From G963667145 sp963676515 [NCBI: Candidatus Cloacimonadota bacterium] (GTDB lineage: Bacteria > Cloacimonadota > Cloacimonadia > G963667145): a DNA stretch of 64,000 nucleotides. This document shows positions 1,561 to 24,919 of this stretch, piece by piece (the stretch's first letter is position 1; every line of letters begins with the position of its first letter). Where the stretch lies: positions 1,116,001 to 1,180,000 of the forward strand of contig OY781061.1 in assembly GCA_963676515.1 (NCBI GenBank). Direction: 5' to 3'. Position numbers and translations under genes: made by a program. The notes under the pieces are model-generated. The model ran no database searches, was not told the DNA's origin, and saw only the letters and a list, made by a program, of their open reading frames with translations.

Positions 1561-4500
1561 TTGGAAAAGTTTAAAAATTACTCCCGGATCAAAAAAAGAT
1601 TTGAAAGTCTTGGGTTTCCTCAAGTCAAAATACCAGACTTATTGGAGACACAAACTAAATCTTTTAATGAGTTTTTGCAACGAGACACTTATCCCAAATT
1701 ACGCAAAAATCAAGGGTTACAAGCTGTATTTAAGAATATCTTCCCGATCGAAGATAATAAAGGGTTGTTTACTCTTGAATTTTTAGAGTACGAGGTTAAA
1801 CAAGAAAAGTACGAGTTGGAGGAGTGCAAACTGCGGAATCTTTCATATGAGGCGATGATTACCGCACGGCTCCGTTTGACTATTTACGATGAAGACCTTT
1901 TGGCAGAGACGGGTGAACGAAAGGTTAAAAACATCCTTGAGCAAGATATTATCTTGGGAAGTATTCCGATTATTACCAAAGATGGTACTTTTTTGGTCAA
2001 TGGTGCTGAGCGGGCGATTATCTCTCAACTTCATAGATCTTATGGCGTGTTTTTCACAGAGACCAAACATCCTAGTGGCAAACCGCTGTATTCTGCAAAA
2101 GTGATACCAGAGCGAGGTACTTGGCTGGAGTTTGCTATGGATGTGCACAATGTGGTGTATGTGTATATTAACAAAAGAAGGAAAATGCCTATCTCTACTC
2201 TGCTGAGAGTGGTAGGATATTCCGAAGACCAAGATATCCGAAAAGTTTTTTATGATAACGCTGTAGTGCCTTTGGAAGATGCTGAGGGCAAGAAAGCTTT
2301 TGATGACATCTCTTCTCCAGAGACGGGAGAAGTTTTGGTGTCTGCGGGTGCGGAGATATCTATCGATATGATAGATGAACTCTCGATCCATGGCATCAAA
2401 GAGGTGTCGGTAATATCTGGAGATATTAACTCCACGATCAGTGTGATAGAAAACACGCTGGAGAAAGATGTTACCACTTGCTCGGCGGAAGCTAGTAGCA
2501 AGATTTACACTCTGATGCGTCCGGGGGAGACTCCTTCGCAAGAAGATGCTGCCAGTTTTGTAAATTCGCTCTTTTTTGATGATCGTCGCTACTCTATCGG
2601 TAAGGTAGGTCGTTACAACATCAACAAAAAATTGGGATTAGATGCACCGCAAGATCAGTTTGTTTTGGGTAAAGAAGATGTTATCGCGATTATCAAAAGA
2701 CTCATTTTTATTTTTGATGGTAAAGAGGATGTCGATAATATTGATTATCTGGAGAACCGTCGTGTTCGCTCTGTGGGCGAGCTTTTGCGGGAACAGTATA
2801 ATATTGGGCTTACTCGCCTTACGAGAGTGGCTGTAGAGAGGATGGCTATCTCTTCTCCGGAAGAGGTGACTGTTTACGATTTGATCAACTCTAACACCTT
2901 GTCTTCTGTGGTACAATCTTTCTTCCTCACAGGACAGCTATCGCAGTTTATGGAGCAAACCAATCCTTTGGCGGAGCTGACTCACAAGAGGAGATTTACC
3001 GCTCTGGGACCAGGTGGACTAGAAAGAGAGCGTGCTGGTATGGAGTCTAGGGATGTGAATAACTCCCATTACGGTAGGATCTGCCCGATAGAGACACCAG
3101 AAGGCCCGAACATCGGACTGATTAACTCTCCAGCGATCTACTCGCGGGTGAACGAGTTTGGTTTCTTGGAGACCCCTTATTACAAAGTGATAGATGGCAA
3201 AGTACTTAAAGACATCGAGTTTTTGAATCCGAGCGTGGAAGCGAAAGCGACAGTGGCTCAGGCAGGCATAGAGATAAATGACGATGGTAGTATCATCAGA
3301 GATTTTGTGTTTGCTCGTCGTGGAGATGAGTTTTTGCAAGTTGCCAAAAAAGAGATAAATTATTTGGATGTATCTCCGATGCAGGCGATGAGCTTGTCTG
3401 CGACGCTGATACCTTTCTTGGAGCATAACGATGCTTCTCGTGCGTTGATGGGCTCGAATATGCAGCGACAAGCTGTGCCGCTACTCAATCCAGAGTTTCC
3501 TGTAGTAGGTACGGGGATGGAGAAGGTAGTTGCCAAAAGTTGTGCCAATGTTCGCCTTGCACCGTTTGATGCCAAGGTGACGGCTGTAACTGCTGACTAT
3601 GTAGAGCTAGAACGCATTGGTGAAGAGGATGATGTCTCGATAGACAACTGCACAAGGATAGAGTTTGCTAAATATAAAAGGTCGAACCAAGATACTTGCA
3701 TAAATCAAAGACCAGTAGTGAAGATAGGGCAGAAAGTGAACAAGGGAGATTTTATTTCCGATGGTCCTTCGGTGGACAAGGGTCGTCTGGCTCTGGGTCG
3801 CAACCTGAAGGTAGCTTTTATGTCTTGGTATGGCTACAACTATGAGGATGCTATTATTTTGAGCGAGAAAGTCGCTTGGGAAGATGCTTTTACCTCTTTG
3901 TATATCGAAGAAAAAGAGGTCTTGGTACGAGAGATGAAGTCAGGAAGAGAAGAGCTGGTGTACGATATCCCCGATGTCTCCAAATACGCTCTGCGGAATT
4001 TGGACAAAACTGGTGTAATCAGATTGGGTAGTGTGATAGAGGCTGGCGATATTATCGTGGGCAAGATCACTCCCAAAAGCTCGGACATAGATCCATCGCC
4101 TGAAGAGAACTTGATGAGAGCACTTTTTGGTGATAGAGCGGGCGATTTTACAAATACTTCTCTCAAAGCTAAGCCTGGAATGGAAGGTGTGGTTGTGGAT
4201 GTACGGGTTTTCTCTCGTGAAGAAGAAGACTTGGATGTTGAACAAGAGAAAGAGTTCAAGCTAAACAAATATAAGAAAGATTTTGAGGAACGCAAAAACA
4301 AGATTCAAGATTTCCTCAAATCTGAGTTCTTGAAGAAGATTGCTGGCAAGATAGCTAAGGAGTTGAAGAGTCGAACATCTGGGCATTACTTTGTGGAGCC
4401 AGGTAAGAAAATTACCAAGGCTGATATCGATGCGGTAGATTTCAAGACGCTTGACCTCAAATCTTCTTTTACTTCGGAACAAGATTTTAATAAAAACTTT

Positions 4501-5331
4501 TACGACACGGTGATCTATAAGGTGAAAGTGGCTTACGGAGAGAACGAGAATATCTATAAGAAACTACGCGACAGAGTGCGTCAGGGAGACGAGCTGGATC
4601 AAGGTGTGTTCAAGATGGTGAAGGTGTATATAGCCAAGAAGAGAAGGATATCAGTAGGAGATAAGATGGCTGGTCGTCACGGAAATAAGGGTGTGGTCTC
4701 GAGAATAGCTCCTATTGCGGATATGCCTTTTACTGCGGATGGTGAAGCTGTGGATATCATTCTTAATCCTCTGGGCGTGCCTTCGCGGATGAATATTGGA
4801 CAGATTTTTGAGACTCACTTAGGGCTTGCTGTTAAGATGCTTGGATACAATGTGGAGACACCTGTATTTGATGGAGCAACAGAGACAGACATCTTGGATG
4901 CATTGGCGGAAGCTGGTTTAGATTTGGATGGTAAGCAGGTGCTTTTTGATGGCAAGACGGGAGATTCGTTTGACCAAAAGGTAACTGTGGGGATGATGTA
5001 CATTCTTAAGCTTAATCACTTGGTAAAAGATAAGATGCATGCCAGAAGCACAGGTCCTTACTCTTTGATAACGCAGCAACCTCTGGGAGGCAAGGCACAA
5101 CATGGTGGACAAAGGCTAGGAGAGATGGAAGTTTGGGCTTTAGAGGCCTATGGTGCTGCCAACTTGCTCAAAGAGATGGTTACGATCAAATCTGATGATA
5201 TGCAAGGGCGTACGGCTGCTTTCAAATCTATAGTTTCTGGTGAAAATCCGACTATCTCTGGGACACCAGAATCTTTTATGGTTTTGGTAAATGAGCTCAA
5301 ATCTCTCGGTTTTGACATCGAGTTTTTATGA
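1561..5331 (+). CDS. rpoB: DNA-directed RNA polymerase subunit beta
   Basis: This is the catalytic beta subunit of RNA polymerase, 1256 residues, somewhat shorter than E. coli (1342) because lineage-specific inserts are missing. It starts at TTG 1561, six bases after AAGGAGA. The rifampicin-pocket region is near residues 456-490: LSQFMEQTNPLAELTHKRRF, then TALGPGGLERERAG and the GRICPIETPEGPNIGLI block. Residue 480 is Thr where E. coli has Ser531, and residue 465 is Glu where E. coli has Asp516. The C-terminal clamp motif (GGQRLGEMEVWALEAYGAA) is intact. rpoC follows after 31 bases. Confidence 0.99.
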   Translation: MEKFKNYSRIKKRFESLGFPQVKIPDLLETQTKSFNEFLQRDTYPKLRKNQGLQAVFKNIFPIEDNKGLFTLEFLEYEVKQEKYELEECKLRNLSYEAMITARLRLTIYDEDLLAETGERKVKNILEQDIILGSIPIITKDGTFLVNGAERAIISQLHRSYGVFFTETKHPSGKPLYSAKVIPERGTWLEFAMDVHNVVYVYINKRRKMPISTLLRVVGYSEDQDIRKVFYDNAVVPLEDAEGKKAFDDISSPETGEVLVSAGAEISIDMIDELSIHGIKEVSVISGDINSTISVIENTLEKDVTTCSAEASSKIYTLMRPGETPSQEDAASFVNSLFFDDRRYSIGKVGRYNINKKLGLDAPQDQFVLGKEDVIAIIKRLIFIFDGKEDVDNIDYLENRRVRSVGELLREQYNIGLTRLTRVAVERMAISSPEEVTVYDLINSNTLSSVVQSFFLTGQLSQFMEQTNPLAELTHKRRFTALGPGGLERERAGMESRDVNNSHYGRICPIETPEGPNIGLINSPAIYSRVNEFGFLETPYYKVIDGKVLKDIEFLNPSVEAKATVAQAGIEINDDGSIIRDFVFARRGDEFLQVAKKEINYLDVSPMQAMSLSATLIPFLEHNDASRALMGSNMQRQAVPLLNPEFPVVGTGMEKVVAKSCANVRLAPFDAKVTAVTADYVELERIGEEDDVSIDNCTRIEFAKYKRSNQDTCINQRPVVKIGQKVNKGDFISDGPSVDKGRLALGRNLKVAFMSWYGYNYEDAIILSEKVAWEDAFTSLYIEEKEVLVREMKSGREELVYDIPDVSKYALRNLDKTGVIRLGSVIEAGDIIVGKITPKSSDIDPSPEENLMRALFGDRAGDFTNTSLKAKPGMEGVVVDVRVFSREEEDLDVEQEKEFKLNKYKKDFEERKNKIQDFLKSEFLKKIAGKIAKELKSRTSGHYFVEPGKKITKADIDAVDFKTLDLKSSFTSEQDFNKNFYDTVIYKVKVAYGENENIYKKLRDRVRQGDELDQGVFKMVKVYIAKKRRISVGDKMAGRHGNKGVVSRIAPIADMPFTADGEAVDIILNPLGVPSRMNIGQIFETHLGLAVKMLGYNVETPVFDGATETDILDALAEAGLDLDGKQVLFDGKTGDSFDQKVTVGMMYILKLNHLVKDKMHARSTGPYSLITQQPLGGKAQHGGQRLGEMEVWALEAYGAANLLKEMVTIKSDDMQGRTAAFKSIVSGENPTISGTPESFMVLVNELKSLGFDIEFL

Positions 5332-11081: not shown

Positions 11082-12644
11082 TTGGATAAGAAAACAGTTT
11101 TGGCAATTGGATTGATTTTTGCCGTATTTTTTTTGAGTAACAAATACTTAAATCCCCCGTCTGAAAAAGGTGAAAGTAAGGTAAGTGAAACCAGGACAGC
11201 AATGGTTGAACAAGTTTCGTCTGCTGAGCCAGTGGTTGCAGCCCCTGTAGAGGTGGTTAAGAGTCGCGAAGGTGTGTTAGTTAACGAAAACATCGTTTTG
11301 GAAAACGAAAAAATCAAATTGATTTTTTCTAATCTTGGTGGACAGTTGGTGTCTGTGTACCTCAAAGAGTACTCGAAAGATTTGCAAGGCGAGATTCCGC
11401 TAAATCTTTTGGCTGGTAGAGCTTTTTCCCTTTCTTTTGACCAAGAGAGTTATCAAAACTATATTTTCGATTATAAGTTATCAGGCAATAGATTACGCTT
11501 CATCGGCGATAAGTACGAAAAAGTTTTCACTATTGGGGAAGATTTTATCTTGGAGTTCGAGCTGAGAGTGGCAGGCAAAAAATTCAACTCTTACCAAATC
11601 GGGATGGACGACGGAATAGCCGAAACTGAGATGTATGTGAAAGGCAAGAGTCGCGACTATGGAGCGGCAGCTTATGTGGATAACAGCTTGGAGAGTGAGA
11701 CTCTTAGCAGTTTTGATGATGAGACAGAAACTTATAGTGGAGACGCCTCTTTCGTGGCTCTTTACAACAAGTATTTTACCATCGGAGTGCGTAAGTTAGG
11801 CTTCCAAAATGTGAATAAAACGGAGTTTTTTGCTGTAAACGACAATCCCTCTTTTAGATTTAAGGTGCTAGAAAATAAAAGCAACTTTTCGCATAAGTAT
11901 AAACTTTATTTTGGACCGATGATAACTGAAGATTTGCAAGCTATGGGCGGTGGTTTTGAGAAGATATCCGACAAGACTTGGAGCTTTTTGAACTGGCTGA
12001 GCAAGTTTTTTGTGAAGCTTTTGAGTTATATTTACGCTGTGATTCCTAACTATGGCGTGTCGATTATTCTTTTTGCTTTTTTCATCAAACTGATTTTGTA
12101 TCCTCTTACACACAAGATGTTTGAGTCGACCCAAAAGATGCAGAAGATACAGCCTCTGATAGCTCAAGTGCAGAAGAAATACAAAACCGATAAGATGAAG
12201 TTGAATACGGAGCTTCGCAAGGTGTACAAGGAGCAAGGCGTGAATCCGCTGGGTGGATGTTTGCCTCTTCTTTTGCAGATACCGATTTTTATAGCTTTGT
12301 ATCCTGCTTTGAAATACTCGATAGCTTTGCGTCAGCAGCCGTTTGTTGGCTGGATAGGCGATTTGGCTGCTCCTGACCCTTATTTTATTTTGCCCGTGCT
12401 GATTGGTGTGTTTATGTTCGTGCAACAGAAGTTCACCATGGCTAGTGCAAGTGACCAGTCTCAGATGACGGATCAGCAAAAAGCGATGCAATCGTCGCAA
12501 AAGATGATGATGTATGGTATGCCAGTTTTCTTGGTTTTTATCTTCCGTGATTTCCCAGCTGGCTTGGTCTTGTATTGGACAGTGTTTAACCTCTTGTCCA
12601 CCCTGCAACAGTATTACATCAAGAAAAAATTTGATATGCAATAA
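11082..12644 (+). CDS. yidC: Membrane protein insertase YidC
   Basis: YidC inserts proteins into the inner membrane, alone or with SecYEG. The 520-residue product has an N-terminal transmembrane anchor (residues about 5-20), a periplasmic beta domain to about residue 300 as in diderm YidC proteins, then the conserved five-helix core (NYGVSIILFAFFIKLILYPLT, GGCLPLLLQIPIFIALY, FPAGLVLYWTVFNLLSTLQQ). It begins at TTG 11082 after TAGGAGA. It ends the operon; an intrinsic terminator follows 16 bases later. The large periplasmic domain supports a Gram-negative host. Confidence 0.97.
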   Translation: MDKKTVLAIGLIFAVFFLSNKYLNPPSEKGESKVSETRTAMVEQVSSAEPVVAAPVEVVKSREGVLVNENIVLENEKIKLIFSNLGGQLVSVYLKEYSKDLQGEIPLNLLAGRAFSLSFDQESYQNYIFDYKLSGNRLRFIGDKYEKVFTIGEDFILEFELRVAGKKFNSYQIGMDDGIAETEMYVKGKSRDYGAAAYVDNSLESETLSSFDDETETYSGDASFVALYNKYFTIGVRKLGFQNVNKTEFFAVNDNPSFRFKVLENKSNFSHKYKLYFGPMITEDLQAMGGGFEKISDKTWSFLNWLSKFFVKLLSYIYAVIPNYGVSIILFAFFIKLILYPLTHKMFESTQKMQKIQPLIAQVQKKYKTDKMKLNTELRKVYKEQGVNPLGGCLPLLLQIPIFIALYPALKYSIALRQQPFVGWIGDLAAPDPYFILPVLIGVFMFVQQKFTMASASDQSQMTDQQKAMQSSQKMMMYGMPVFLVFIFRDFPAGLVLYWTVFNLLSTLQQYYIKKKFDMQ

Positions 12645-12660
12645 AAGACAATAATAGAAC

Positions 12661-12692
12661 AAAAGCCTATCCTGGAAGGGGTAGGCTTTTTT
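12661..12692 (+). terminator. Intrinsic terminator after yidC
   Basis: The stem AAAAGCCTATCC pairs with GGGTAGGCTTTT around a loop of about six bases and runs into six T residues. It closes the long rplA-yidC operon and insulates the CRISPR-Cas region that begins three bases later with a TTGACA. Confidence 0.9.
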
Positions 12693-12694
12693 AG

Positions 12695-12723
12695 TTGACA
12701 TTTTTTATCCTAATTGATTAAAG
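12695..12723 (+). promoter_or_regulatory. Promoter for the pseudo-CRISPR RNA
   Basis: A consensus TTGACA (12695-12700) is followed after 17 bases by TTAAAG (12718-12723), preceded by an extended -10 TGn (12715-12717). The predicted start is near 12730, about ten bases before the first degenerate repeat. The position just behind the yidC terminator and just ahead of the pseudo-repeat suggests a dedicated promoter for the small RNA, although it could also read through into cas3. No experimental support. Confidence 0.6.
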
Positions 12724-12740
12724 AGATAGAAGTGAAGCAA

Positions 12741-12830
12741 ATTTTCCCCTTTTCTAAGGGGATGAACCGTTAGTCTTAATAGGATTTATTAGGCTTTCAA
12801 AAATTTCCCCGCATAAGCGGGGAGTTTCAC
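12741..12830 (+). ncRNA. CreR-like pseudo-CRISPR RNA (repeat-spacer-repeat)
   Basis: Two degenerate copies of the downstream array's 29-nt repeat lie at 12741-12769 and 12802-12830, separated by exactly 32 nt (12770-12801), the same unit size as the array. Repeat 1 has CCCCTT-TTCT-AAGGGG in place of CCCCGC-ACAA-GCGGGG: both arms changed together, so the 6-bp stem and tetraloop survive. Its 3' end GGGGATGAACCG, which gives the crRNA 5' handle, is unchanged. Repeat 2 keeps the CCCCGC/GCGGGG stem but has lost the handle sequence. Each repeat thus keeps only what one crRNA needs. Known relatives are Cas-regulating RNAs (CreR) beside other type I operons. I infer Cas6e processing and loading into Cascade. 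Confidence 0.82.
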
Positions 12831-12838
12831 TTTTTAAT

Positions 12839-12861
12839 TATAATACAATTAATACTAACTT
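12839..12861 (-). promoter_or_regulatory. Predicted Cascade self-target over the cas3 promoter
   Basis: On the minus strand, reading from 12861, AAG (a preferred type I-E PAM) is followed by a sequence matching the pseudo-spacer at positions 1-5 (TTAGT), 7-11 (TTAAT), 13 and 15-17. Mismatches fall at 6, 12, 14 and 18; positions 6, 12 and 18 are those that Cascade leaves unpaired. The crRNA would therefore pair with plus-strand bases 12842-12858. These overlap a perfect -10 hexamer TATAAT at 12839-12844 and its expected start near 12851. No good -35 is visible for that -10. A second weak promoter, TTGACG at 12874 with TTTAAA at 12896, lies downstream. Confidence 0.7.
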
Positions 12862-12918
12862 TATTTTTTTTGATTGACGAATTTTCTCTTTTTCTTTTAA
12901 ACAGCTTTAGGAGATAAA

Positions 12919-15618
12919 ATGAAAGAAGATATTTATAAATATTGGGGAAAAGCGGATAAAGAAGGTAACTATCACTTGCTTGTTTATCATTGTTTAGATG
13001 TTGCCGCAGTAGGTAAAGTTTGGCTGGAGAAATCGCCAGCATTTGTAAAAAGAGCGGCAAGAATTTGTGGGATTTCTGAAAAATCTTTTAGAGAGTTGTT
13101 TCTCTTTTTTCTTGTCGATCATGATTTGGGTAAATTAGCTATCGGCTTCCAGAGCCTTAACTTAGAGATTGCTGTAAAATTGCAGGGTAAAGTTTTCAAA
13201 TTTCCTTATAGTCCTCGGCATGACCAAAGAGGTTATGAAATGTGGAATCAGAATATAGCAGAGTATTTATTGCAATCTTTTGAGTTCTCTGAAAAGGAAT
13301 TAAACTTTTCGCGAGAATTTTTAGAAATTTTTGCTCGTATCTCTTTTGGTCATCACGGAATGCCTCCTGAAAGGAAAAGGATACCAAGCAAAAAAATGGA
13401 GATTTTTTGGGATTGGATGAATTGTATGAAAAAGTTGTTTTTTTCGGAGGAAGCGTTACAAGAGATCAAGAAAAATGCTAATTCTACTCAAGAAAAGAAA
13501 AGAAATATTTTGAAAGAGTTAAAATCTTTGTCTTGGCAGCTTGCGGGTGTGGTGTCTATTTGTGATTGGATAGCCTCTGGAGACGAAGAGTTTAGCTATT
13601 GTTCTGATGAAATGCCTTTGGAAAAGTACTTTACAAAGTCTTGTGCAAAGGCTCAAAAAGCTATGAAAAGGGCAGGACTTTTTTCCAAAAAAATATCTTC
13701 TAATGTGGGGGCGAAGAGATTGTTTCCCAATTTTGCGGATAATCTCACACCTTTGCAAAAGTATTGTGATGAAGTTGTTGTTTCTGGTGAACCACAACTT
13801 TTTATTTTGGAAGATGTGACAGGAACTGGAAAGACGGAAGCAGCTCTAATTTTGGCTTCAAGAATTATGGCTGCTGGTGGTGGTAAGGGCTGTTTTGTAG
13901 CGTTGCCTACTATGGCTACATCAAATGCAATGTATGAGAGAATGGCAAAGGTTTATAGTCTCATTTATGAAGAAGGACAAAGACCAAGTTTGATACTTGC
14001 ACATGGTTCTCGGCAGTTATCTAAAAAATTTGCTGATTCTTATAGCACTTGTGTTAAAGGTTTGTCCCAAACAAGTGGGGAATATGATGAAAATACTGCG
14101 GAAGGCGAAGCACATTGTTCGCAGTGGTTGGCTAACTCTTCCAAAAAGGCACTTCTTGCTGATGTCGGAGTTGGAACTGTTGACCAAGTTTTATTGGCAG
14201 GATTACCTGTGCGGTATCAATCTCTTCGTGCTTATGGGATGTCGCAAAATGTTTTGATTGTGGATGAAGTCCACTCTTTTGACCCCTATATGCTTATTCT
14301 TTTAGAAAACATGATAAGGGCTCAGGCTAGTTTTGGAAGGTCTGTTATTTTGCTCTCGGCAACGCTACCCTTAGTAGTGCGAAGCAGATTTTGTGGAGCT
14401 TTCGCAAAGGGATTAGAGATAGAATCTCCAAAAATCAAAGAAAGAGATGCTTTTCCTCTGGTGACTTCCCTTAATTCAGGCGAATTTATAGAAAAAGAAA
14501 TAGGCTCATCTCATTTTGCAAATAAAGAGGTGCGTGTTGAATTTAAAGAGTCTTTGGATGAAATATACGAACTAATCGAGAAGGCTTCACTTCAAGGAAA
14601 ATGTGTCTGTTGGATCAGGAACACTATTTTTGATGTTCTAGATGCTTATAGGGGCTTGAAAAGTAGAGGATTAGTGGAAGTGGAAATTTTTCACAGTCGT
14701 TTTGCTTTGAAGAATCGTCTTGATATCGAGCAAAGAGTAGTGAGTGAATTTGGGAAAGAATCGACGGAAAAACAAAGAAAAGGGAAAGTGCTGATAGCTA
14801 GTCAGGTGGTGGAGCAGTCATTGGATTTAGATTTTGATTTGATGGTTTCTGATCTGGCGCCGATAGATCTATTAATACAAAGAGCAGGCAGGTTACACCG
14901 TCATTGGCGTGGAGATAGAGGCGACGCTGTTTTGTATTGTCTTATTCCTAGTGAGACGAAAAATCCCAAAGAAGATTGGTATTCTGCTGCTTTTCCGAAG
15001 GCTCAATGGGTATATAAAGATGTGGCTCTTCTCTGGAAAACTAAGGAAATTTTGCGAAAGCAAAAAATAATCAAGATGCCTCAGGAAGCTAGATTGTTAG
15101 TTGAGTCTGTTTATGGGGATGAATTTGGTATCGCAGTGCCTGAAATTTTTATAGAATCTGAAAATTTGGCTTGGTCTGACATTCTTACAAAAGAGACTTT
15201 TGCTAAATTCAATAGCCTAAAGTTTGATCAGGGTTATTCCAGATCTAGTAGCTATAAATGGGATGAAGATGAAAATGCGTCCACTAGGCTTTCAGACCCT
15301 ACTGTTACTATTTATTTGTGTAGCTGGGAAGATGACGAAATTAAGCCTTTATTTGAAGAAGAACCTCATAAATGGGAAATCAGTTCGCTTTCCATCAGGA
15401 AGAGCAGTTTTCCTTGTGTGGAATATGATTTAAATGTAAAAACGAAGATAGAGGAACTGAAAAATCAGCGAAGATTTAAATATAATTCTGAATTTTTGGT
15501 ATTTGTTGGAGAAGCCTTAGAGCTGGTGGGGGAAAACAAAGAGGGGAAAGTTGTCTTAAGATATGATTTTAAACTGGGATTGATAATAGAGAAAAGTAAA
15601 GATAAAGGAGAATTATGA
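12919..15618 (+). CDS. cas3: CRISPR-associated helicase/nuclease Cas3 (type I-E)
   Basis: Cas3 is recruited to the Cascade R-loop, unwinds DNA and degrades it. The 899-residue product has an N-terminal HD nuclease domain (H24, DHD at 67-69, FGHHGMPPER) fused to an SF2 helicase: Walker A VTGTGKT 300-306, DEVH 449-452, SAT 480-482 and motif VI QRAGRLHRH 654-662. All catalytic motifs are intact. ATG 12919 follows TAGGAGA. The end overlaps cas8e by 4 bases, so cas3 heads one operon with the Cascade and adaptation genes. This differs from E. coli, where a promoter region separates cas3 from the rest. Confidence 0.97.
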   Translation: MKEDIYKYWGKADKEGNYHLLVYHCLDVAAVGKVWLEKSPAFVKRAARICGISEKSFRELFLFFLVDHDLGKLAIGFQSLNLEIAVKLQGKVFKFPYSPRHDQRGYEMWNQNIAEYLLQSFEFSEKELNFSREFLEIFARISFGHHGMPPERKRIPSKKMEIFWDWMNCMKKLFFSEEALQEIKKNANSTQEKKRNILKELKSLSWQLAGVVSICDWIASGDEEFSYCSDEMPLEKYFTKSCAKAQKAMKRAGLFSKKISSNVGAKRLFPNFADNLTPLQKYCDEVVVSGEPQLFILEDVTGTGKTEAALILASRIMAAGGGKGCFVALPTMATSNAMYERMAKVYSLIYEEGQRPSLILAHGSRQLSKKFADSYSTCVKGLSQTSGEYDENTAEGEAHCSQWLANSSKKALLADVGVGTVDQVLLAGLPVRYQSLRAYGMSQNVLIVDEVHSFDPYMLILLENMIRAQASFGRSVILLSATLPLVVRSRFCGAFAKGLEIESPKIKERDAFPLVTSLNSGEFIEKEIGSSHFANKEVRVEFKESLDEIYELIEKASLQGKCVCWIRNTIFDVLDAYRGLKSRGLVEVEIFHSRFALKNRLDIEQRVVSEFGKESTEKQRKGKVLIASQVVEQSLDLDFDLMVSDLAPIDLLIQRAGRLHRHWRGDRGDAVLYCLIPSETKNPKEDWYSAAFPKAQWVYKDVALLWKTKEILRKQKIIKMPQEARLLVESVYGDEFGIAVPEIFIESENLAWSDILTKETFAKFNSLKFDQGYSRSSSYKWDEDENASTRLSDPTVTIYLCSWEDDEIKPLFEEEPHKWEISSLSIRKSSFPCVEYDLNVKTKIEELKNQRRFKYNSEFLVFVGEALELVGENKEGKVVLRYDFKLGLIIEKSKDKGEL

Positions 15619-17189
15619 ATTTAGTTAAAGATATTTGGTTGCCTATCGTGCGTAAAAATGGGAAGGAAGAGAAGATAGCAATTCATCAGCTTTTGAAGGA
15701 GTATGAGTCTAACCCAGTAATGGAAATTTTGGTGCCTCGTCCTGATTTTAAAAATGCCCTTTATCAGCTTCTTATCGGGATAGTACAGGTAACATCTATG
15801 CCAGAGAGTGAAGTTGATTGGGCAGAATGCTTTGAAAATCCTTGTAGTTCTTTTGAGTTTTCGGAAAGAGTGCGAGAATATGAAGATTGCTTTGAAATAG
15901 ATTCGGGGAACGCTGATTTTATGCAAGATTGTGATCTGCCGAAGACAGAGAAAAAACTTATTTCTGCTCTTTTAATAGAGGCTCCAGGAGAAAATACTGT
16001 AAAAAATAATAAGGCTCATTTTGTGAAAAGTGGATTGGTGAACCAAATGGATGGGTATTGGGCTGCTGTGGCTCTTTATACTTTACAAACATTTGCTCCT
16101 TCTGGTGGATCTGGTCATAGAGTAGGGTTGAGAGGGGGAGGTCCTCTCACGACTATAATCATTCCTCAAGGAGAATCGACTTTGTGGGAGAAAATTTGGT
16201 TTAATGTTTTGAGCCAAGAAAATGTCTCTCTTATTCCTGGAGATTTAAATAAAAAGGAGAAGGCGGATATTTTCCCTTGGATGAATGAGACGAAAATTAG
16301 TGATAAGAAAGGGAAAGAAATATTTTCTTCTCAGGTGCATCCTTTTTATCATTTTTTTGGAATGCCAAGGCGAATAAGATTGGAATTTTTAGAAGAAAGA
16401 GGCTTTTGTGATGTTTCTGGAGTGGAGAGTGAGAGATTAGTAAAAACATATAAGGCAAAGAATTATGGAAATAATTATGATGGAGTTTGGGCTCACCCTT
16501 TGAATGCATATCGTAGTTATCCCCAAAAGCCAAATGATTTACCCTCATCCATAAAAGCTCAACCTGGAGGGATTGGTTATCGTCATTGGTTGGGACAGGC
16601 GATAGAGGCTGAGAGTGTAAATCCTGCCATCACAGTGCAACAGATTAGTGAATCTTCTTCAAGAAGTGCTATGGCTGATAAATATGGTGTAACTCTTTGG
16701 ATAGCTGGATATGATATGGACAATATGAAAGCACGGTGTTGGTATGAGTCGATTATGCCTTTTTATGCTTTGACTCCCAATGAAATCTTGCTAGTGCAAA
16801 ACTTCATTTCGAGATTTATATCTTCAACAGCAGATCTGGCAAAATCCTTAAAGAGTTCTCTTAAGTTTGCTTGGGCAAATAGACCTAAAGACATCAAAGG
16901 AGATATTAGTTTCATAGAATCTTCTTTTTGGCAAAATACAGAAGAACCTTTTTATAATTTGTTAAGTGAGTTGGTCAGTAATCTTGAATATGTTGAAAAA
17001 AGGAATGAACTCTTAGATTTTTGGGGAAAGGTTGTAAGAAAGGAAACGGAACACATTTTTGATACTACCGCTTTTGCACAGCAAATAGAGGGGCTTAACT
17101 TAAAGCGTGTGATCAAAGCTCGTAAAGGTCTTGGTCTGGGAATTGGGAAGTTTATAAAAAATTTAAGAAAAATAAAAGAGGAGGTATAA
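15615..17189 (+). CDS. casA: Type I-E Cascade large subunit Cas8e (Cse1/CasA)
   Basis: Cse1 recognises the PAM and positions Cas3 on the R-loop. The 524-residue product shows the family start NLVKDIWLPIVRKNGKEEKI and the motif region with SGGSGHRVGLRGGGPLTT, plus a C-terminal four-helix-type region. The length matches E. coli CasA (502). ATG 15615 overlaps the cas3 stop (ATGA), indicating coupling. The AAG seen before the predicted self-target is what an E. coli-like Cas8e would accept, but PAM preference cannot be read with certainty from the protein. Confidence 0.95.
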   Translation: MNLVKDIWLPIVRKNGKEEKIAIHQLLKEYESNPVMEILVPRPDFKNALYQLLIGIVQVTSMPESEVDWAECFENPCSSFEFSERVREYEDCFEIDSGNADFMQDCDLPKTEKKLISALLIEAPGENTVKNNKAHFVKSGLVNQMDGYWAAVALYTLQTFAPSGGSGHRVGLRGGGPLTTIIIPQGESTLWEKIWFNVLSQENVSLIPGDLNKKEKADIFPWMNETKISDKKGKEIFSSQVHPFYHFFGMPRRIRLEFLEERGFCDVSGVESERLVKTYKAKNYGNNYDGVWAHPLNAYRSYPQKPNDLPSSIKAQPGGIGYRHWLGQAIEAESVNPAITVQQISESSSRSAMADKYGVTLWIAGYDMDNMKARCWYESIMPFYALTPNEILLVQNFISRFISSTADLAKSLKSSLKFAWANRPKDIKGDISFIESSFWQNTEEPFYNLLSELVSNLEYVEKRNELLDFWGKVVRKETEHIFDTTAFAQQIEGLNLKRVIKARKGLGLGIGKFIKNLRKIKEEV

Positions 17190-17692
17190 TGAATGAAAAA
17201 ACTACGAAAAAGCTTTTGGAATGGTGGGATTCTCTGCAAAACGATAATGGTGGTAAAGCTCAGCTTAAGAGGTGCCATTCTCCGCAAGAAGCTATTCTTT
17301 ATCCGCAAACTTTTAAATTGAAACACATTCTTTATTGGCTACCTTTGGAGGCTTTGGCTACGGTAGCGGGGGTGGGAGCTCATATAAAAAGTGCCACAGG
17401 AAAGAATTTTGGGGTGGCTTTAGCTACACCAGCGGAAATTGGAGGTCTAGCTCCTTTTTCTGAAACTCGTTTTCGTCAACTTCTTTCGGCTCGTGATTGG
17501 CAAGAGCTTTATAGATTTCTTCGTCGTGCTGTGACGATACTCGATGGGAAGGTTAGCTTTGTTAATTTTGTAGAGACTGTGATTTTGTGGAGTGAAGAGT
17601 TTACGGGTAAATATAAAGAAATTGGTAAGAGTTTAAAGTTTAAGCTGTCAGAGGCTTATTATACGAATTTATTGCTACAAGAAAAAAAATAA
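17189..17692 (+). CDS. casB: Type I-E Cascade small subunit Cse2 (CasB)
   Basis: Cse2 forms a dimer along the Cascade belly that stabilises the displaced strand. The 167-residue all-helical product fits CasB in length (E. coli 160), position and conserved segments (W..L....GGKAQLKRCHSPQEA and FSETRFRQLLSARDWQELYRFLRRAV). ATG 17189 shares a base with the casA stop and follows AGGAGG. Confidence comes from both sequence pattern and operon order. Confidence 0.93.
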   Translation: MNEKTTKKLLEWWDSLQNDNGGKAQLKRCHSPQEAILYPQTFKLKHILYWLPLEALATVAGVGAHIKSATGKNFGVALATPAEIGGLAPFSETRFRQLLSARDWQELYRFLRRAVTILDGKVSFVNFVETVILWSEEFTGKYKEIGKSLKFKLSEAYYTNLLLQEKK

Positions 17693-17703
17693 AGGGGTAA
17701 AAA

Positions 17704-18759
17704 ATGTCAAAATTTATTCAAATTCATATGTTAACGAATTATGCACCGTCAAATCTTAATCGTGACGACTTGGGAAGACCGAAAACTGCCAAAATGGGAG
17801 GAGTGGATAGACTTAGAATCTCTTCACAATCCCTAAAGCGTGCTTGGAGAACTTCCGACTTATTTCAAAATACTTTGGCAGGAAATATAGGGACAAGGAC
17901 TAAAAAGATTGGGGAAGAGATTTATGATTTTTTGTTGGAGAAAGAAGTAGAAGAAAGTAAGGCTCTGGAAGTTTCTATCGCTGTTGCTGGAATTTTTGGT
18001 AAAAATGAAAAGAAAGACAAAAAAAAACCTCTTGCAGAACTTGAAATTGCTCAGCTCTCGCATATTACACCTATGGAGATAGAAGCGGCTAAGAAGTTGG
18101 CTGTGGTGAAAGCGGAAGAAGAGAGTGTAGAGATTACCAAAAAAGAGATAGAAAAGCTACATAGTGGTGCTAGTGCTGTGGATATTGCTTTGTTTGGCAG
18201 GATGTTAGCATCTGCTCCGAAGTACAATATGGAAGCGGCTGTTCAGGTTTCGCACGCTCTGACAGTGAATAAGGTAGTTGTAGAGGATGATTATTTTACG
18301 GCAATAGACGATCTGAATTCTCGCCAAGATGATGCTGGTTCTGCACACATCGGAGAGTCTGGGTTTGGTTCGGGAATTTTTTACACCTACATTTGCATAA
18401 ATGAGTCATTGTTAGTAGAGAATTTGAAAGACGAAAATTTAGCAAATAGGGCGATTAAAGCTTTGATAGAAGTAGCAGCGACTGTAGCTCCTTCTGGCAA
18501 GCAAAACAGCTTTGCTTCTAGGGCAAGAGCTCTTTATATGTTGGCAGAAAAGGGCTCTCAGCAGCCACGGCAGCTGTCTTCGGCTTTTTTGAAACCTGTA
18601 GATGGTGTGGATATGTCTGCTGAATCTATTAGCAGAATACAAGATCTTTGTGAAAATATGGATAAAGTTTATGGTAAGTGTGCAGATGAAAGGAAATCTT
18701 TTGATGTTGAAAAGGGACAAGGAACTCTTTTAGAAATTCTTGATTTCATAGGAGAGTAG
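17704..18759 (+). CDS. casC: Type I-E Cascade backbone Cas7 (Cse4/CasC)
   Basis: Six Cas7 copies form the crRNA-binding backbone; their thumbs flip out every sixth base, which is relevant to the self-target mismatches at positions 6, 12 and 18. The 351-residue product opens with FIQIHMLTNYAPSNLNRDDLGRPKTA and the RISSQSLKRAWRTS motif typical of the family, then VAPSGKQNSFASRARA. It sits 11 bases after casB with GGGG before ATG. The length agrees with E. coli CasC (363). Confidence 0.96.
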   Translation: MSKFIQIHMLTNYAPSNLNRDDLGRPKTAKMGGVDRLRISSQSLKRAWRTSDLFQNTLAGNIGTRTKKIGEEIYDFLLEKEVEESKALEVSIAVAGIFGKNEKKDKKKPLAELEIAQLSHITPMEIEAAKKLAVVKAEEESVEITKKEIEKLHSGASAVDIALFGRMLASAPKYNMEAAVQVSHALTVNKVVVEDDYFTAIDDLNSRQDDAGSAHIGESGFGSGIFYTYICINESLLVENLKDENLANRAIKALIEVAATVAPSGKQNSFASRARALYMLAEKGSQQPRQLSSAFLKPVDGVDMSAESISRIQDLCENMDKVYGKCADERKSFDVEKGQGTLLEILDFIGE

Positions 18760-18761
18760 TT

Positions 18762-19544
18762 GTGCAATTTCTTTTATTTCAAGTTTATTCTCCCCTTGTT
18801 TCTTGGGGAGAAATAGCAGTAGGAGGAGAAAGGTTATCGGCGAGACATCCGTCTAAATCCGCTATTCTTGGACTTTTGGCTGCGGCTTTGGGCATAAAAA
18901 GGGAAGATGAAGATTTGCATAACAATCTTTTCAAATCTTTGGGTGTTGCCATTAAGCTTTATTCTGGTGGATCTTTGCTGTCTGACTATCACACCACACA
19001 GGTGCCAAAGCAAGAGAAGAATGTAATCCATCATACTCGCAAATCGGAACTTTCTAGAAAAAATAAATTGGAGGCAGTACTCTCGAGGCGTGAATATCGC
19101 TGTGATGCTCTTTGCGTGGTGGCTATTTATTGCAAAGATGATGAAATGTCTCTGGGTGAAATTGAAAAAGCTTTGCGAGAACCCAAGTTTCATCTATATT
19201 TTGGCAGGAAATCCAATCCTCCAGCTTTGCCATTGTCTCCTTTTATCATCGAAGCAGAAACTCTAAAGGAAGCTTTTTCTGGATTTAGAGTGAAGTTCGT
19301 TTTGCCGATTAGTGAGGATAGTTATGCTTGGAAGCAGGAGATCTTTATGAGCTACCCACGGGAAACCCTTTTTGGCAAAAAAGTGTATTATTTTTGGGAG
19401 GAGGGTGTAAATGCTGGGTTAGAGTCGATGCATAAAGTGGAAAGGTATGATGTTTCCTCTAGTCGAAAAAGATGGCAGTTTGCTCCTCGTAAAGAGTTTA
19501 TGAGTGTGGCGCAAACAGAGGAGAGTTTAGATGTATCTAAGTAA
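18762..19544 (+). CDS. casD: Type I-E Cascade subunit Cas5e (CasD)
   Basis: Cas5 caps the crRNA 5' handle in Cascade. The 260-residue product has the RAMP start LLFQVYSPLVSWGEIAVGGERLSARHPSKSAILGLLAAALGI, here in pieces such as SWGEIAVGGER and HPSKSAILGLLAAALG, and a FGRKSNPPALPLSP segment. It starts at GTG 18762, two bases after the casC stop, with AGGAGA just upstream inside casC. It overlaps cas6e by 14 bases. Confidence 0.95.
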   Translation: MQFLLFQVYSPLVSWGEIAVGGERLSARHPSKSAILGLLAAALGIKREDEDLHNNLFKSLGVAIKLYSGGSLLSDYHTTQVPKQEKNVIHHTRKSELSRKNKLEAVLSRREYRCDALCVVAIYCKDDEMSLGEIEKALREPKFHLYFGRKSNPPALPLSPFIIEAETLKEAFSGFRVKFVLPISEDSYAWKQEIFMSYPRETLFGKKVYYFWEEGVNAGLESMHKVERYDVSSSRKRWQFAPRKEFMSVAQTEESLDVSK

Positions 19545-20199
19545 AGTAGTCTTGAAACAGAGCCCTAAACTTTTTGGTTTTTTGTCCAAAAGAAGTGGCA
19601 CTGATGGTTATGCTGCTCACCAACTTCTTTGGGGGCTGTTTCCTAACAGAGGCAAAAAAACTCGAGATTTCTTGTATTATAAACAGGAGGGTGGAGGTTT
19701 GCCTTTTTTTTTAATAATATCTCAAGATAGACCTGTTGAAAATGAGGCTTTAGAAGTTTCTACAAAGGACTTTTTGCCTAAGTTAAATGCAGGAGATAGG
19801 CTTGCTTTTAGTTTGCAAGCTAACCCTGTGATTTCTAGAAAAGAGGGCGAAAAATCTATCAGGCACGATGTTTTGATGGATGTGAAATACAGATTAAAAG
19901 AAAAAAATCTTTCTTTGGCAGAGATAAACTCTGCTAGCGAAAAGGCTGCAAAAGAATGGTTGATAGCTCAAGGAGAAAGGACAGGGTTTTCGTGCTCTTT
20001 AGAATCAATAAGTATTGATGGATATAAGAAGCATAGTTTTTATAAAAAAAAGAGTGCTGTTCCCATTAAATTTAGTTCCATCCGCTATGAAGGGATTTTG
20101 AGCGTTACAGACCCTGAAAAATTTGTGGATATGCTCAAAAAAGGTCTTGGTAAATCGAAAGCTTTTGGGTGTGGACTTATGTTGGTTAGGAGGATATAG
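19531..20199 (+). CDS. casE: crRNA-processing endoribonuclease Cas6e (CasE)
   Basis: Cas6e cuts each repeat hairpin at its 3' base, leaving the 8-nt handle (ATGAACCG here), and stays bound to the 3' hairpin. The 222-residue product has His30 in DGYAAHQLLWGLFP, the position of the catalytic histidine, and the C-terminal glycine-rich loop GLGKSKAFGCGLMLV. Because Cas6e reads the stem shape, the compensatory stem changes in the pseudo-repeat at 12741 should still be bound. Start ATG 19531 lies inside cas5. Confidence 0.95.
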   Translation: MYLSKVVLKQSPKLFGFLSKRSGTDGYAAHQLLWGLFPNRGKKTRDFLYYKQEGGGLPFFLIISQDRPVENEALEVSTKDFLPKLNAGDRLAFSLQANPVISRKEGEKSIRHDVLMDVKYRLKEKNLSLAEINSASEKAAKEWLIAQGERTGFSCSLESISIDGYKKHSFYKKKSAVPIKFSSIRYEGILSVTDPEKFVDMLKKGLGKSKAFGCGLMLVRRI

Positions 20200-21394
<1,195 letters not shown>

Positions 21395-21481: not shown

Positions 21482-24255
21482 ATGTTCCCCGCACAAGCGG
21501 GGATGAACCGATTGGCTTTGACATTTCTTTTTTCTTTTTTAGATGTTCCCCGCACAAGCGGGGATGAACCGCTGCTTTGACTGCTTTTAGTAGTGGAGCT
21601 GGCATGTTCCCCGCACAAGCGGGGATGAACCGCCACAAGTCTTGTTGACCCGCAGGGCGGCAGGATGTTCCCCGCACAAGCGGGGATGAACCGCAGAGTC
21701 TACAAGACAAAAGGTTTTTGATCTCATGTTCCCCGCACAAGCGGGGATGAACCGGAAGTCGCCAGCTTTAACTATTTGAACACAGAATGTTCCCCGCACA
21801 AGCGGGGATGAACCGCTAGCTGTCTACACGAGGGGCGGGATGCTATAATGTTCCCCGCACAAGCGGGGATGAACCTTGGCAGGATGTTAAAAACGATTGT
21901 GCCGTGAAATGTTCCCCGCACAAGCGGGGATGAACCATGGTGTAGTTGGTTGTGGGTGTTCCCGCCAGAATGTTCCCCGCACAAGCGGGGATGAACCGCT
22001 GGTCTGCATTTAGTTTTCTGGTGTTCTGTGATGTTCCCCGCACAAGCGGGGATGAACCGAGTTGAGGAGTTTTTTTTGAGCAGATCACGGGATGTTCCCC
22101 GCACAAGCGGGGATGAACCGAAGCCAAGTAATGTCTACATTATGGGTTTCAGATGTTCCCCGCACAAGCGGGGATGAACCGGCGGGAAAAGATGAAGAAT
22201 ATCACACTACAGCATGTTCCCCGCACAAGCGGGGATGAACCTGGTAAACGGTGGGATTAAATTCTCAAGCAGGCATGTTCCCCGCACAAGCGGGGATGAA
22301 CCGGTGGACGGTGTTATATTGTATCTTTCTCTTATATGTTCCCCGCACAAGCGGGGATGAACCGTCCAATAGAGCCAATAAGATAAAATACGGCAAATGT
22401 TCCCCGCACAAGCGGGGATGAACCGAGGTTTTGCTTTTTGCCTTTTAGGTTTTTTTCATGTTCCCCGCACAAGCGGGGATGAACCGAGATTGTAAAAATG
22501 GGTATCCAACCGAAAAACATGTTCCCCGCACAAGCGGGGATGAACCGACCCTGCTTGGGCTTTTAAATGGCTTGAGGCTATGTTCCCCGCACAAGCGGGG
22601 ATGAACCGTGGCGAAATTGCAGTCAAATCTTCCATAAATGATGTTCCCCGCACAAGCGGGGATGAACCGAGTTTTTTCGTCCTCTGAGTTCTCATCTAAG
22701 TATGTTCCCCGCACAAGCGGGGATGAACCGAATTGGAATGATGGGAGTGGGAGATATTGAAGATGTTCCCCGCACAAGCGGGGATGAACCGGTTTGAAAC
22801 ATTAGCAGACTCAAATTGTATCAATGTTCCCCGCACAAGCGGGGATGAACCGATGCAGACGGGCTTTTAATTGCTAGATATTGTATGTTCCCCGCACAAG
22901 CGGGGATGAACCGTTGTAGCGTTCAAAACAGCCCCGTCGATTGAGATGTTCCCCGCACAAGCGGGGATGAACCGGCGTTGACGAGCTGCTTTTTTTGTCC
23001 AGTGTGATGTTCCCCGCACAAGCGGGGATGAACCGCTACGAGCCGACAACTTACCATCTTGACTATAATGTTCCCCGCACAAGCGGGGATGAACCGCTCC
23101 GATTTTGTTCCAGTGGCTATTCTGCAAAATGTTCCCCGCACAAGCGGGGATGAACCGAAATTTCAAAAAGTGTTCCTTTGGCTCGTTGTATGTTCCCCGC
23201 ACAAGCGGGGATGAACCGCTGTCGGCACCGTGCCGATGTTGTCTATCAAGATGTTCCCCGCACAAGCGGGGATGAACCGGCAGAAATGAGAGCAAAAAGG
23301 ACGCTGGCTCCATGTTCCCCGCACAAGCGGGGATGAACCGCCATCATTACCGCAGAAAGAACAGTAAGAAGCATGTTCCCCGCACAAGCGGGGATGAACC
23401 GATAAATCAAATACTGTCAAATTAGCAGAACTCATGTTCCCCGCACAAGCGGGGATGAACCGCGTCAATCGTTTATGAACTTTATCAGCGAGGAATGTTC
23501 CCCGCACAAGCGGGGATGAACCGAAAGAGCTTAGTCTTGGCTACAATGCCGAGATATGTTCCCCGCACAAGCGGGGATGAACCACCGACTACGGCAAAAC
23601 CGAACACGGAACGACCATGTTCCCCGCACAAGCGGGGATGAACCGCCAAATGGGTTTTTGTGGTCATTGTATGCGTAATGTTCCCCGCACAAGCGGGGAT
23701 GAACCGTCGCCCCTAAGAACACTCAATTTTTCTATCCCATGTTCCCCGCACAAGCGGGGATGAACCGAACGAAATAAAACGAGTTTTGGACTCACACGGA
23801 TGTTCCCCGCACAAGCGGGGATGAACCGTTTTGATTGAACCGTCGCTTTTTAGATAATCCATGTTCCCCGCACAAGCGGGGATGAACCGTGGAGGATTTG
23901 GCTCGCAGGTGGAACGATGTTATGTTCCCCGCACAAGCGGGGATGAACCGTCAGTGCCCTTTTAAGGAGGGGAAAATGGAGAATGTTCCCCGCACAAGCG
24001 GGGATGAACCGCGACAGCAATTGCTGGTGTGGCAGACAAATTCATGTTCCCCGCACAAGCGGGGATGAACCGAGTATCGTCATCCTTGACATCTAGCACC
24101 TCATATGTTCCCCGCACAAGCGGGGATGAACCGGATGTTGGCGGCGTGCCGACTGATAGATACTGATGTTCCCCGCACAAGCGGGGATGAACCGCCCGCA
24201 CGGTACAACAGGAATGAGAAGTTCTTATGTTCCCCGCACAAGCGGGGATGAACCG
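21482..24255 (+). CRISPR. Type I-E CRISPR array, main part (46 repeats)
   Basis: Forty-six 29-bp repeats occur at an exact 61-bp period (21482 + 61n, last at 24227), giving 45 spacers of 32 bp. The repeat begins ATGTTCCCCGC, has an ACAA tetraloop between CCCCGC and GCGGGG, and ends GGGGATGAACCG, clearly E. coli-like. The only variation I noticed is the last base (T at 21876 and 22242, A at 21937 and 23584). This fits the repeat's terminal G being taken from the PAM on acquisition. The spacer after 23983 minus one unit (23951-23982) contains an AAGGAGG...ATG gene start, so it comes from a coding-gene start, probably of a phage. No spacer was seen to match elsewhere in the window by eye. Confidence 0.99.
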
Positions 24256-24257
24256 CA

Positions 24258-24308
24258 GTAAAGTATGCTTGGGATAGGTTTGAGAAGAAATGCCTCGATT
24301 TGGGCTAA
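24258..24308 (+). pseudogene. 3' end of a phage-like gene
   Basis: The open frame entering from repeat 46 reads VKYAWDRFEKKCLDLG and stops at TAA 24306. It crosses the 32-nt boundary where a repeat would be expected, showing that the DNA is continuous with its source and not spacer plus decayed repeat. Helical, lysine-rich C-terminal ends like this are common in phage tail proteins; no firm assignment is possible from 16 residues. Confidence 0.4.
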
Positions 24309-24406
24309 CAAGGCAAGATTTTAAGGAGATGAGCATGGTGGAGGTTTACACGATGTGGGCTTTAGAATATGAAAAAGAAAGAGAGATGGAAAGGTCTAGG
24401 ATTTGA
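24290..24406 (+). CDS. Small phage-like protein (38 aa)
   Basis: ATG 24290 overlaps the preceding frame by 19 bases and gives MPRFGLTRQDFKEMSMVEVY, then TMWALEYEKEREMERSRI. Short acidic/basic helical proteins overlapping the upstream gene in another frame are typical of the second part of tail assembly chaperones made by frameshifting. That role is a guess from layout and composition only. It is probably silent here, since it sits inside a CRISPR array. Confidence 0.35.
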   Translation: MPRFGLTRQDFKEMSMVEVYTMWALEYEKEREMERSRI

Positions 24407-24559
24407 AGCGATTGCGAGGGCTTATTTTTATGTTGTGTTTGCAGTTGTATTTGAGAGCGAGAAAAAAAAGAACACTGGGAGCTATAAAAAAAACAATGAA
24501 AAAAGTAAAAGTTATCATAAAAACCTCCATTTCCTACAAATGGGGGTTAGGAATTTAAA

Positions 24560-24707
24560 ATGTCAAGCAATAAATTAGAATTAAATATTGAGGTTGATGT
24601 TGCGGCTCTAAAAGAGGGGTTTGCAACAGGGTTGAAATTGGCTCAGAAATTTGTAACGCAGTTTAATGGGTTAATGAGCGGAGAGAGGACTCAGGTAGAT
24701 ATAAAGG
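24560..24707 (+). pseudogene. 5' fragment of a phage-like gene (tape-measure-like?)
   Basis: ATG 24560, after TTAGGA, opens 49 codons (MSSNKLELNIEVDVAALKEG...) before the frame runs into repeat 47. An amphipathic start with a repeated Val/Leu pattern and an alpha-helical continuation is seen at the N terminus of many phage tail length proteins. The real gene would be much longer; here it is truncated. The assignment is tentative. Confidence 0.35.
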
Positions 24708-24919
24708 ATGTTCCCCGCACAAGCGGGGATGAACCGGAGTGGTCTAGCTCTCCCCAATTCCAGCAGTTATGTTCCCCGCACAAGCGGGGATGAACCGTGT
24801 AGTAGCGAAATTACTCATCAATTTGTATCATGTTCCCCGCACAAGCGGGGATGAACCGCTGAAATCATTCCTGCAAGCAAGTTAATTGCAATGTTCCCCG
24901 CACAAGCGGGGATGAGCTG
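24708..24919 (+). CRISPR. Type I-E CRISPR array, distal part (4 repeats)
   Basis: Repeats resume at 24708, 24769, 24830 and 24891 with the 61-bp period and three 32-bp spacers. The first three match the consensus; the last ends GGGGATGAGCTG instead of GGGGATGAACCG. A decayed terminal repeat is the normal sign of the leader-distal end, so these are the oldest spacers. If transcription runs through the 452-nt block they can still be processed. Confidence 0.97.

What the first reader, a model, noticed from the sequence alone, without database searches (positions are those of the whole stretch)
12839..12861. Pseudo-spacer targets the cas3 promoter with an AAG PAM and mismatches at Cascade's flipped-out positions
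On the minus strand, AAG (12861-12859) is followed by TTAGTATTAAT; the pseudo-spacer begins TTAGTCTTAAT. Identity covers positions 1-5, 7-11, 13 and 15-17; mismatches are at 6, 12, 14 and 18. Positions 6, 12 and 18 are not read by type I-E Cascade, so only position 14 is a real mismatch in the first 17. The remaining positions pair poorly, as needed for binding without Cas3 cleavage. The site covers a perfect TATAAT. This predicts negative feedback on the whole cas operon that is relieved when array crRNAs compete for Cascade or when Cascade is inhibited.
Basis: partly seen in the sequence, partly recalled or inferred. Interest (0 to 1): 0.93.

Follow-up and report, generated by a model that had tools for sequence, protein, structure and literature searches.

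The report
Mini-CRISPR that represses its own cas genes
In front of the cas3 gene of an uncultured bacterium lies a tiny, worn two-repeat CRISPR whose guide matches DNA just upstream of cas3, so the CRISPR machinery probably throttles its own production; this kind of feedback is already known, but matching guide-target pairs collected from other bacteria back it strongly.

Summary
Upstream of a type I-E cas operon sits a degenerate two-repeat mini-CRISPR (12741-12830). Its 32-nt spacer matches the minus strand at 12858-12827, next to an AAG PAM, at positions 1-5, 7-11, 13 and 15-17. About 9e-5 AAG+seed matches are expected by chance in this intergenic region.

Best explanation: a cas-regulating RNA (CreR), a published kind. 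Cas6e would cut the transcript, Cascade would take up the guide and bind in front of cas3 without recruiting Cas3, and cas expression would fall until array crRNAs or anti-CRISPRs tie up Cascade.

Comparison: scans of cas3-linked loci gave 15 distinct guide-target pairs, this one included. In a test blind to position, 9 of 12 single mismatches within positions 1-11 fell at position 6 (p=7e-8). In one sister pair (Cas3 92% identical) guide and target both changed, yet each guide still fits its own target.

Not shown: transcription, repression, or the cas3 promoter (the TATAAT has no -35). No close relative of this host was found. E. coli data suggest that seed-only Cascade binding is often transcriptionally inert.

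Verdict: new member of a known kind.

The parts
12695..12724 (+). candidate promoter of the mini-CRISPR: TTGACA (12695-12700), 18 nt, TAAAGA (12719-12724)
   Evidence: second-best pair in the region, but below the mean of shuffled DNA; inference only. It follows a terminator-like hairpin at about 12661-12692 read by eye, which the scan did not list.
12741..12769 (+). psi-R1, degenerate first repeat: stem CCCCTT/AAGGGG in place of CCCCGC/GCGGGG (two pairs changed on both sides), 5' handle ATGAACCG intact
   Evidence: sequence and RNA fold -10.9 kcal/mol, z -2.8
12770..12801 (+). pseudo-spacer, 32 nt, the guide
   Evidence: lies between psi-R1 and psi-R2, whose starts are 61 nt apart, the same spacing as in the array
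12802..12830 (+). psi-R2, degenerate second repeat: hairpin intact, handle decayed to AGTTTCAC; may double as a terminator
   Evidence: fold -14.7 kcal/mol, z -5.6; listed as terminator-like 12805-12824
12827..12858 (-). target protospacer of the guide; seed (positions 1-11) at 12858-12848
12859..12861 (-). AAG PAM of the target
   Evidence: base after AACC is G in 45 of 49 array units, which fits a PAM ending in G
12839..12844 (+). TATAAT, possible -10 element of cas3
   Evidence: present; no -35 partner
12919..21394 (+). type I-E operon: cas3, cse1, cse2, cas7, cas5, cas6e, cas1, cas2
   Evidence: NCBIfam: each protein passes the cut-off of at least one model; for Cas3 these are the helicase-core and HD-domain models, while its whole-protein model PRK09694 is hit below cut-off. 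57 nt separate the PAM from the cas3 start codon.
21482..24919 (+). CRISPR array, 49 exact copies of the repeat core plus a degenerate last copy

Best explanation
12741-12830 encodes a cas-regulating RNA (CreR). Inferred steps: the mini-CRISPR is transcribed; Cas6e cuts at its two hairpins and leaves one guide with the normal 5' handle (from psi-R1) and a 3' hairpin (from psi-R2); as psi-R2's own handle has decayed, no second guide forms; Cascade with this guide binds AAG plus ten seed pairs (1-5, 7-11) just upstream of cas3. PAM-distal pairing is too poor to recruit Cas3, so the DNA is not cut but transcription of the cas operon is hindered. When array crRNAs compete for Cascade, or an anti-CRISPR disables it, repression lifts. 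Shown here: the anatomy, the PAM-adjacent match and its improbability, the same arrangement with other sequences in other loci, one co-varying sister pair. Not shown: the RNA, its processing, binding, repression, relief.
For: Exact match and chance estimates. Two repeats at array spacing; handle kept only in psi-R1, hairpin kept in both, two compensatory pair changes in psi-R1's stem. Complete I-E operon directly downstream. 15 distinct mini-CRISPR/target pairs beside cas3 or cse1 genes (14, L075), AAG PAM in 12 of 15. Position-blind test: 9 of 12 single mismatches in positions 1-11 at position 6, p=7e-8. Co-variation between G685 (L079) and G1187 (L131/L137): guides agree at 4 of 11 and targets at 4 of 11 positions, while each guide keeps 10 of 10 seed matches with its own target. 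Published I-B CreA needs exactly positions 1-5 and 7-11 and tolerates changes at 6 and 12 (PMC8501985, passage); the window shows the same pattern.
Against: No expression data. No supported cas3 promoter. In E. coli type I-E, off-target Cascade binding through short seeds did not change transcription, and its authors cite greatly reduced promoter repression with 6 PAM-distal mismatches (PMC5904413, passages). No pair was found in the loci from the phylum samples nearest by Cas3 or tried for RpoB (scanned). Many cas3 loci scanned gave no pair, among them L147 and L153, relatives of L073. The PAM of this system was not measured (searches found no protospacer).
Confidence: 0.85

Rival explanations
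1. The mini-CRISPR is a dead remnant of an old array and the match to the cas3 upstream DNA is chance in AT-rich sequence.
For: The repeats are degenerate; the region is AT-rich; the promoter is not supported.
Against: Expected chance matches 9.3e-5; 0 of 20,000 shuffles; compensatory changes in psi-R1's stem and an intact handle; the same arrangement recurs with other sequences.
Confidence: 0.07
2. A CreTA-like addiction module: the guide represses a toxin RNA rather than cas3.
For: Same kind of repeat degeneration and the same 1-5/7-11 seed as CreA (PMC8501985, PMC9458426; passages).
Against: The first gene after the target is cas3, 57 nt downstream. ORFs under 80 aa were not listed and a toxin RNA need not be an ORF, so this is not excluded by sequence alone.
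Confidence: 0.04
3. A real guide binds the site, but seed-only binding is too weak to change transcription; the guide serves another end, for example tying up spare Cascade.
For: E. coli off-target Cascade binding was transcriptionally inert (PMC5904413, passages).
Against: A guide that only ties up Cascade needs no matching target in front of cas genes, yet guide and target stay matched in 15 pairs and changed together in one sister pair; reviews report cas autorepression by CreR in type I-E.
Confidence: 0.04

Closest known systems
CreR, cas-regulating RNA (described in reviews PMC13131331, PMC12737573, PMC12948488, passages seen; the original article is recalled as Cell Host & Microbe 2023 and was not read)
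   Same: Mini-CRISPR with degenerate repeats beside a cas operon, partial PAM-adjacent complementarity to the cas upstream DNA; types I-B, I-E and V-A are reported.
   Different: Nothing essential seen; another host lineage and another sequence. Repression not tested here.
CreA of CreTA (type I-B haloarchaea, PMC8501985 and PMC9458426, passages seen)
   Same: Degenerate psi-R1 and psi-R2; seed pairing at 1-5 and 7-11 with 6 and 12 free.
   Different: CreA represses a toxin RNA, creT; here the gene behind the target is cas3.
Streptococcus pyogenes Cas9 autorepression (mentioned in PMC13131331, passage; its natural single guide RNA is recalled)
   Same: An effector represses its own genes; relieved by anti-CRISPRs.
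   Different: Class 2 effector; no mini-CRISPR.

Membership tests
CreR | Mini-CRISPR with two degenerate repeats linked to a cas operon | tested here: met
   12741-12830, 61-nt repeat spacing, upstream of cas3
CreR | PAM-adjacent partial complementarity to cas upstream DNA | tested here: met
   AAG plus 1-5, 7-11, 13, 15-17; 9.3e-5 expected by chance
CreR | Target lies in the cas promoter | tested here: inconclusive
   57 nt upstream of the cas3 start and over a TATAAT, but no -35 and no promoter pair better than shuffles
CreR | RNA is made, cut by Cas6 and bound by Cascade | not testable with these tools
   handle and hairpins are in place; no RNA data
CreR | Represses cas expression; relieved by crRNAs or anti-CRISPRs | not testable with these tools
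   needs experiments
CreR | Guide and target co-vary | tested here: inconclusive
   no close relative of this host found; seen in G685/G1187 of another lineage
CreTA | A toxin gene (creT) directly under the repressed site | tested here: inconclusive
   first listed gene after the target is cas3, 57 nt away; short toxin RNAs were not searched for

The most novel reading that the evidence does not exclude
Natural self-repressing guide/target pairs are a readable record of how Cascade reads DNA: across 15 type I-E pairs position 6 matches in 3 and position 12 in 4, while 1-5, 7, 8 and 11 match in all (positions 1-11 other than 6 were part of the search rule, so the position-blind test carries the claim). 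Such loci are also re-founded repeatedly, guide and target being replaced together between sister species, perhaps by capturing a new self-spacer from the current cas upstream DNA whose unread and PAM-distal positions then decay (L078 and L004 still match out to position 23).
Probability: 0.4. Interest if true: 0.62.

Novelty: new member of a known kind. Interest (0 to 1): 0.5.

Why it matters
It puts RNA-guided cas autorepression in an uncultured bacterium with no close relative among the genomes tried, and supplies 15 natural guide/target pairs, three of them in named, cultured species (Pokkaliibacter plantistimulans L004, Azospirillum argentinense L215, Roseomonas marmotae L221), that can be tested. 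The pairs give an evolutionary test of the every-sixth-base model of Cascade and sharpen a conflict: E. coli work says seed-only binding does not affect transcription, yet such pairs are kept in front of cas genes.

Tried and rejected
Rfam search of 12600-13000: ten weak hits, all below gathering scores, none credible. Protospacers for a direct PAM: phage BLAST of 21482-24300 (the larger part of the array) and exact scans of three array spacers in viral contigs gave nothing usable; the mini-CRISPR pattern gave 0 matches in viral contigs. Host placement by RpoB: full-length identities 46, 47 and 51%, main segments 44-50% in eight further genomes; unresolved. Order-level searches gave groups of 2, 20, 20 and 5 genomes; the second class search drew largely the same genomes as the first (against 40).

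Rows dropped by judgement: of 32 hits, nine (L004:19406 and L015 lie in arrays; L013 is an inverted repeat; L197, L217, L155, L170, L087 lack a repeat-like first hairpin; L010 is GC-rich with an AGG PAM). The other 23 rows are 14 distinct pairs. L121 was dropped as a probable chance hit. L075 was found and missed by the rules; L076 and L078 were missed. Shuffled-spacer controls gave 0-8 hits per scan, mean 3, and 0-4, mean 2, all PAMs together, so a few of the 15, above all those with AAA or ATG PAMs (L071, L113, L215), could be chance; their repeat-like hairpins speak against it. Position 12 against 13-14 is not significant alone (p=0.07). An early idea that a mismatch at position 6 is itself selected (10 of 10 pairs at that stage, note) was dropped when L185, L004 and L215 matched there.

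Full report
What is there. The window carries a ribosomal-protein and RNA-polymerase gene cluster running to yidC, a terminator-like hairpin read by eye at about 12661-12692, then a complete type I-E operon, cas3 to cas2, and an array with 49 exact repeat cores plus a degenerate last copy. Between yidC and cas3 lie two worn copies of the array repeat, 61 nt apart, the array's own spacing. psi-R1 keeps the 5' handle ATGAACCG and a stem in which two G-C type pairs became U-A pairs by changes on both sides; psi-R2 keeps the hairpin but has lost its handle. This is what is needed to make one guide and no more. A pattern scan of the whole window found no other isolated repeat of this form.

The match. 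Among 127,930 sites of the window it is the only one besides the spacer itself with 14 of the 15 non-flipped positions in 1-17; 0 of 20,000 shuffled spacers do as well at the 16 AAG sites of the intergenic region, and the best of 49 array spacers there scores 11. The expected number of AAG + ten-seed matches in the region is 9.3e-5. The PAM is not measured, but the base after AACC is G in 45 of 49 array units; that this base comes from the PAM in type I-E is recalled knowledge. TATAAT is present but lacks a -35, and no promoter pair in the region beats shuffled DNA, so 'cas3 promoter' stays an inference.

Comparison. No whole genome is held for the window. The nearest Cas3 found, in a MAG labelled Fibrobacter succinogenes, is 59% identical but its contig ends inside the gene (L001). 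I therefore looked at cas3 loci at large: 17 loci; 167 genomes, 384, 369 (largely repeated), 247, 2, 20, 20 and 5, 398, with at most about 30 loci taken per search; and 12 of 42 plasmid records. One search scanned 223 sequences (222 loci and a window excerpt; redundant, many of them not type I-E). It gave 32 hits; I accepted 23 rows, which are 14 distinct pairs, and rejected 9. The 15 are the window, L004, L016, L071, L073, L075, L076, L078, L079, L113, L137 (=L131), L151, L185, L215 and L221; L073 and L151 are related. PAMs: AAG 12, AAA 2, ATG 1. In L016 the mini-CRISPR lies between cas3 and cse1, antisense to them; in the window and L004 upstream of cas3; in L215 between divergent casA and cas3. 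No accepted pair came from the loci, which include L021, the nearest full-length Cas3 relative (49%). L147 and L153, relatives of L073, have none, so the element is gained or lost.

Footprint of Cascade. Because most scans ignored positions 6 and 12 by design, I repeated the search blind to position: at least 10 of 11 matches in positions 1-11, any position allowed to fail, five PAMs. Fourteen distinct hits came out, two without and twelve with one mismatch; nine of the twelve mismatches are at position 6, two at 9, one at 10; with AAG alone 7 of 8 are at 6. Against one in eleven this gives p=7e-8 and 4e-7, slightly optimistic as L073 and L151 are related. Two of the three exceptions (L010, L197; AGG PAM) look like chance hits but are kept in the count. 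Shuffled spacers gave 0-4 hits per scan. Over the 15 pairs position 6 matches in 3, position 12 in 4, position 13 in 12. The dip at 12 against 13-14 is not significant alone (p=0.07).

Co-variation. G685 (L079) and G1187 (L131/L137) have Cas3 proteins 92% identical and 87.7% identical DNA over 958 nt on the cse1 side. Their guides agree at 4 of the first 11 positions, their targets at 4, cross matches are 3, but each guide keeps 10 of 10 seed matches with its own target. Over all 15 pairs own matches are 8-10 of 10, cross-locus matches 3.05 on average.

Literature. Reviews describe CreR as crRNA-like RNAs by which types I-B, I-E and V-A repress their own cas genes through partial promoter complementarity, sensing crRNA abundance and anti-CRISPRs (PMC13131331, PMC12737573, PMC12948488; passages). 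For I-B CreA, changing any of positions 1-5 and 7-11 cost about 10^4-fold in transformation and changing 6 or 12 did not (PMC8501985, passage); repeat degeneration is typical, psi-R1 more than psi-R2 (PMC9458426, passages). Against: in E. coli, Cascade binds with as few as 5 seed pairs, but off-target binding did not change transcription, and position 6 matched in 45% of off-target sites (PMC5904413, passages). The original CreR paper was not read. In the listings I saw no title on a position-6 statistic for natural I-E pairs; that does not show that none is in print.

Verdict. Function is unproven in this organism.

Noticed in passing
24255-24707: Between two array repeats lies a 453-nt stretch in place of a 33-nt spacer. 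By eye it holds the end of one reading frame, a short frame and the start of another, like a captured piece of phage DNA; PHROGs gave no hit for two of its peptides, so this is unverified.
   Followed up: partly
12730-12738 and 12824-12832: A flanking inverted repeat (AAGTGAAGC / GTTTCACTT) can close a stem around the whole mini-CRISPR transcript; folded energy -39.8 kcal/mol, z -5.8. It uses the bases that replaced psi-R2's handle.
   Followed up: no
L004, 9554-9662 (minus strand): Pokkaliibacter plantistimulans has a mini-CRISPR with three hairpins upstream of cas3; the first two handles are 61 nt apart. The first spacer has an AAG target, for the second, shorter one none was found.
   Followed up: partly
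L215, 1741 (minus strand): An Azospirillum plasmid carries a mini-CRISPR between divergent casA and cas3, with an ATG PAM and a match at all of positions 1-11.
   Followed up: partly
L211, 1094-1725: A vapBC toxin-antitoxin pair is annotated directly upstream of the I-E cas3 on a Roseomonas mucosa plasmid.
   Followed up: no
window 1561-5331 (rpoB): RpoB is 46-51% identical over full length in three genomes and 44-50% over main segments in eight more; the host lineage stays unplaced.
   Followed up: partly
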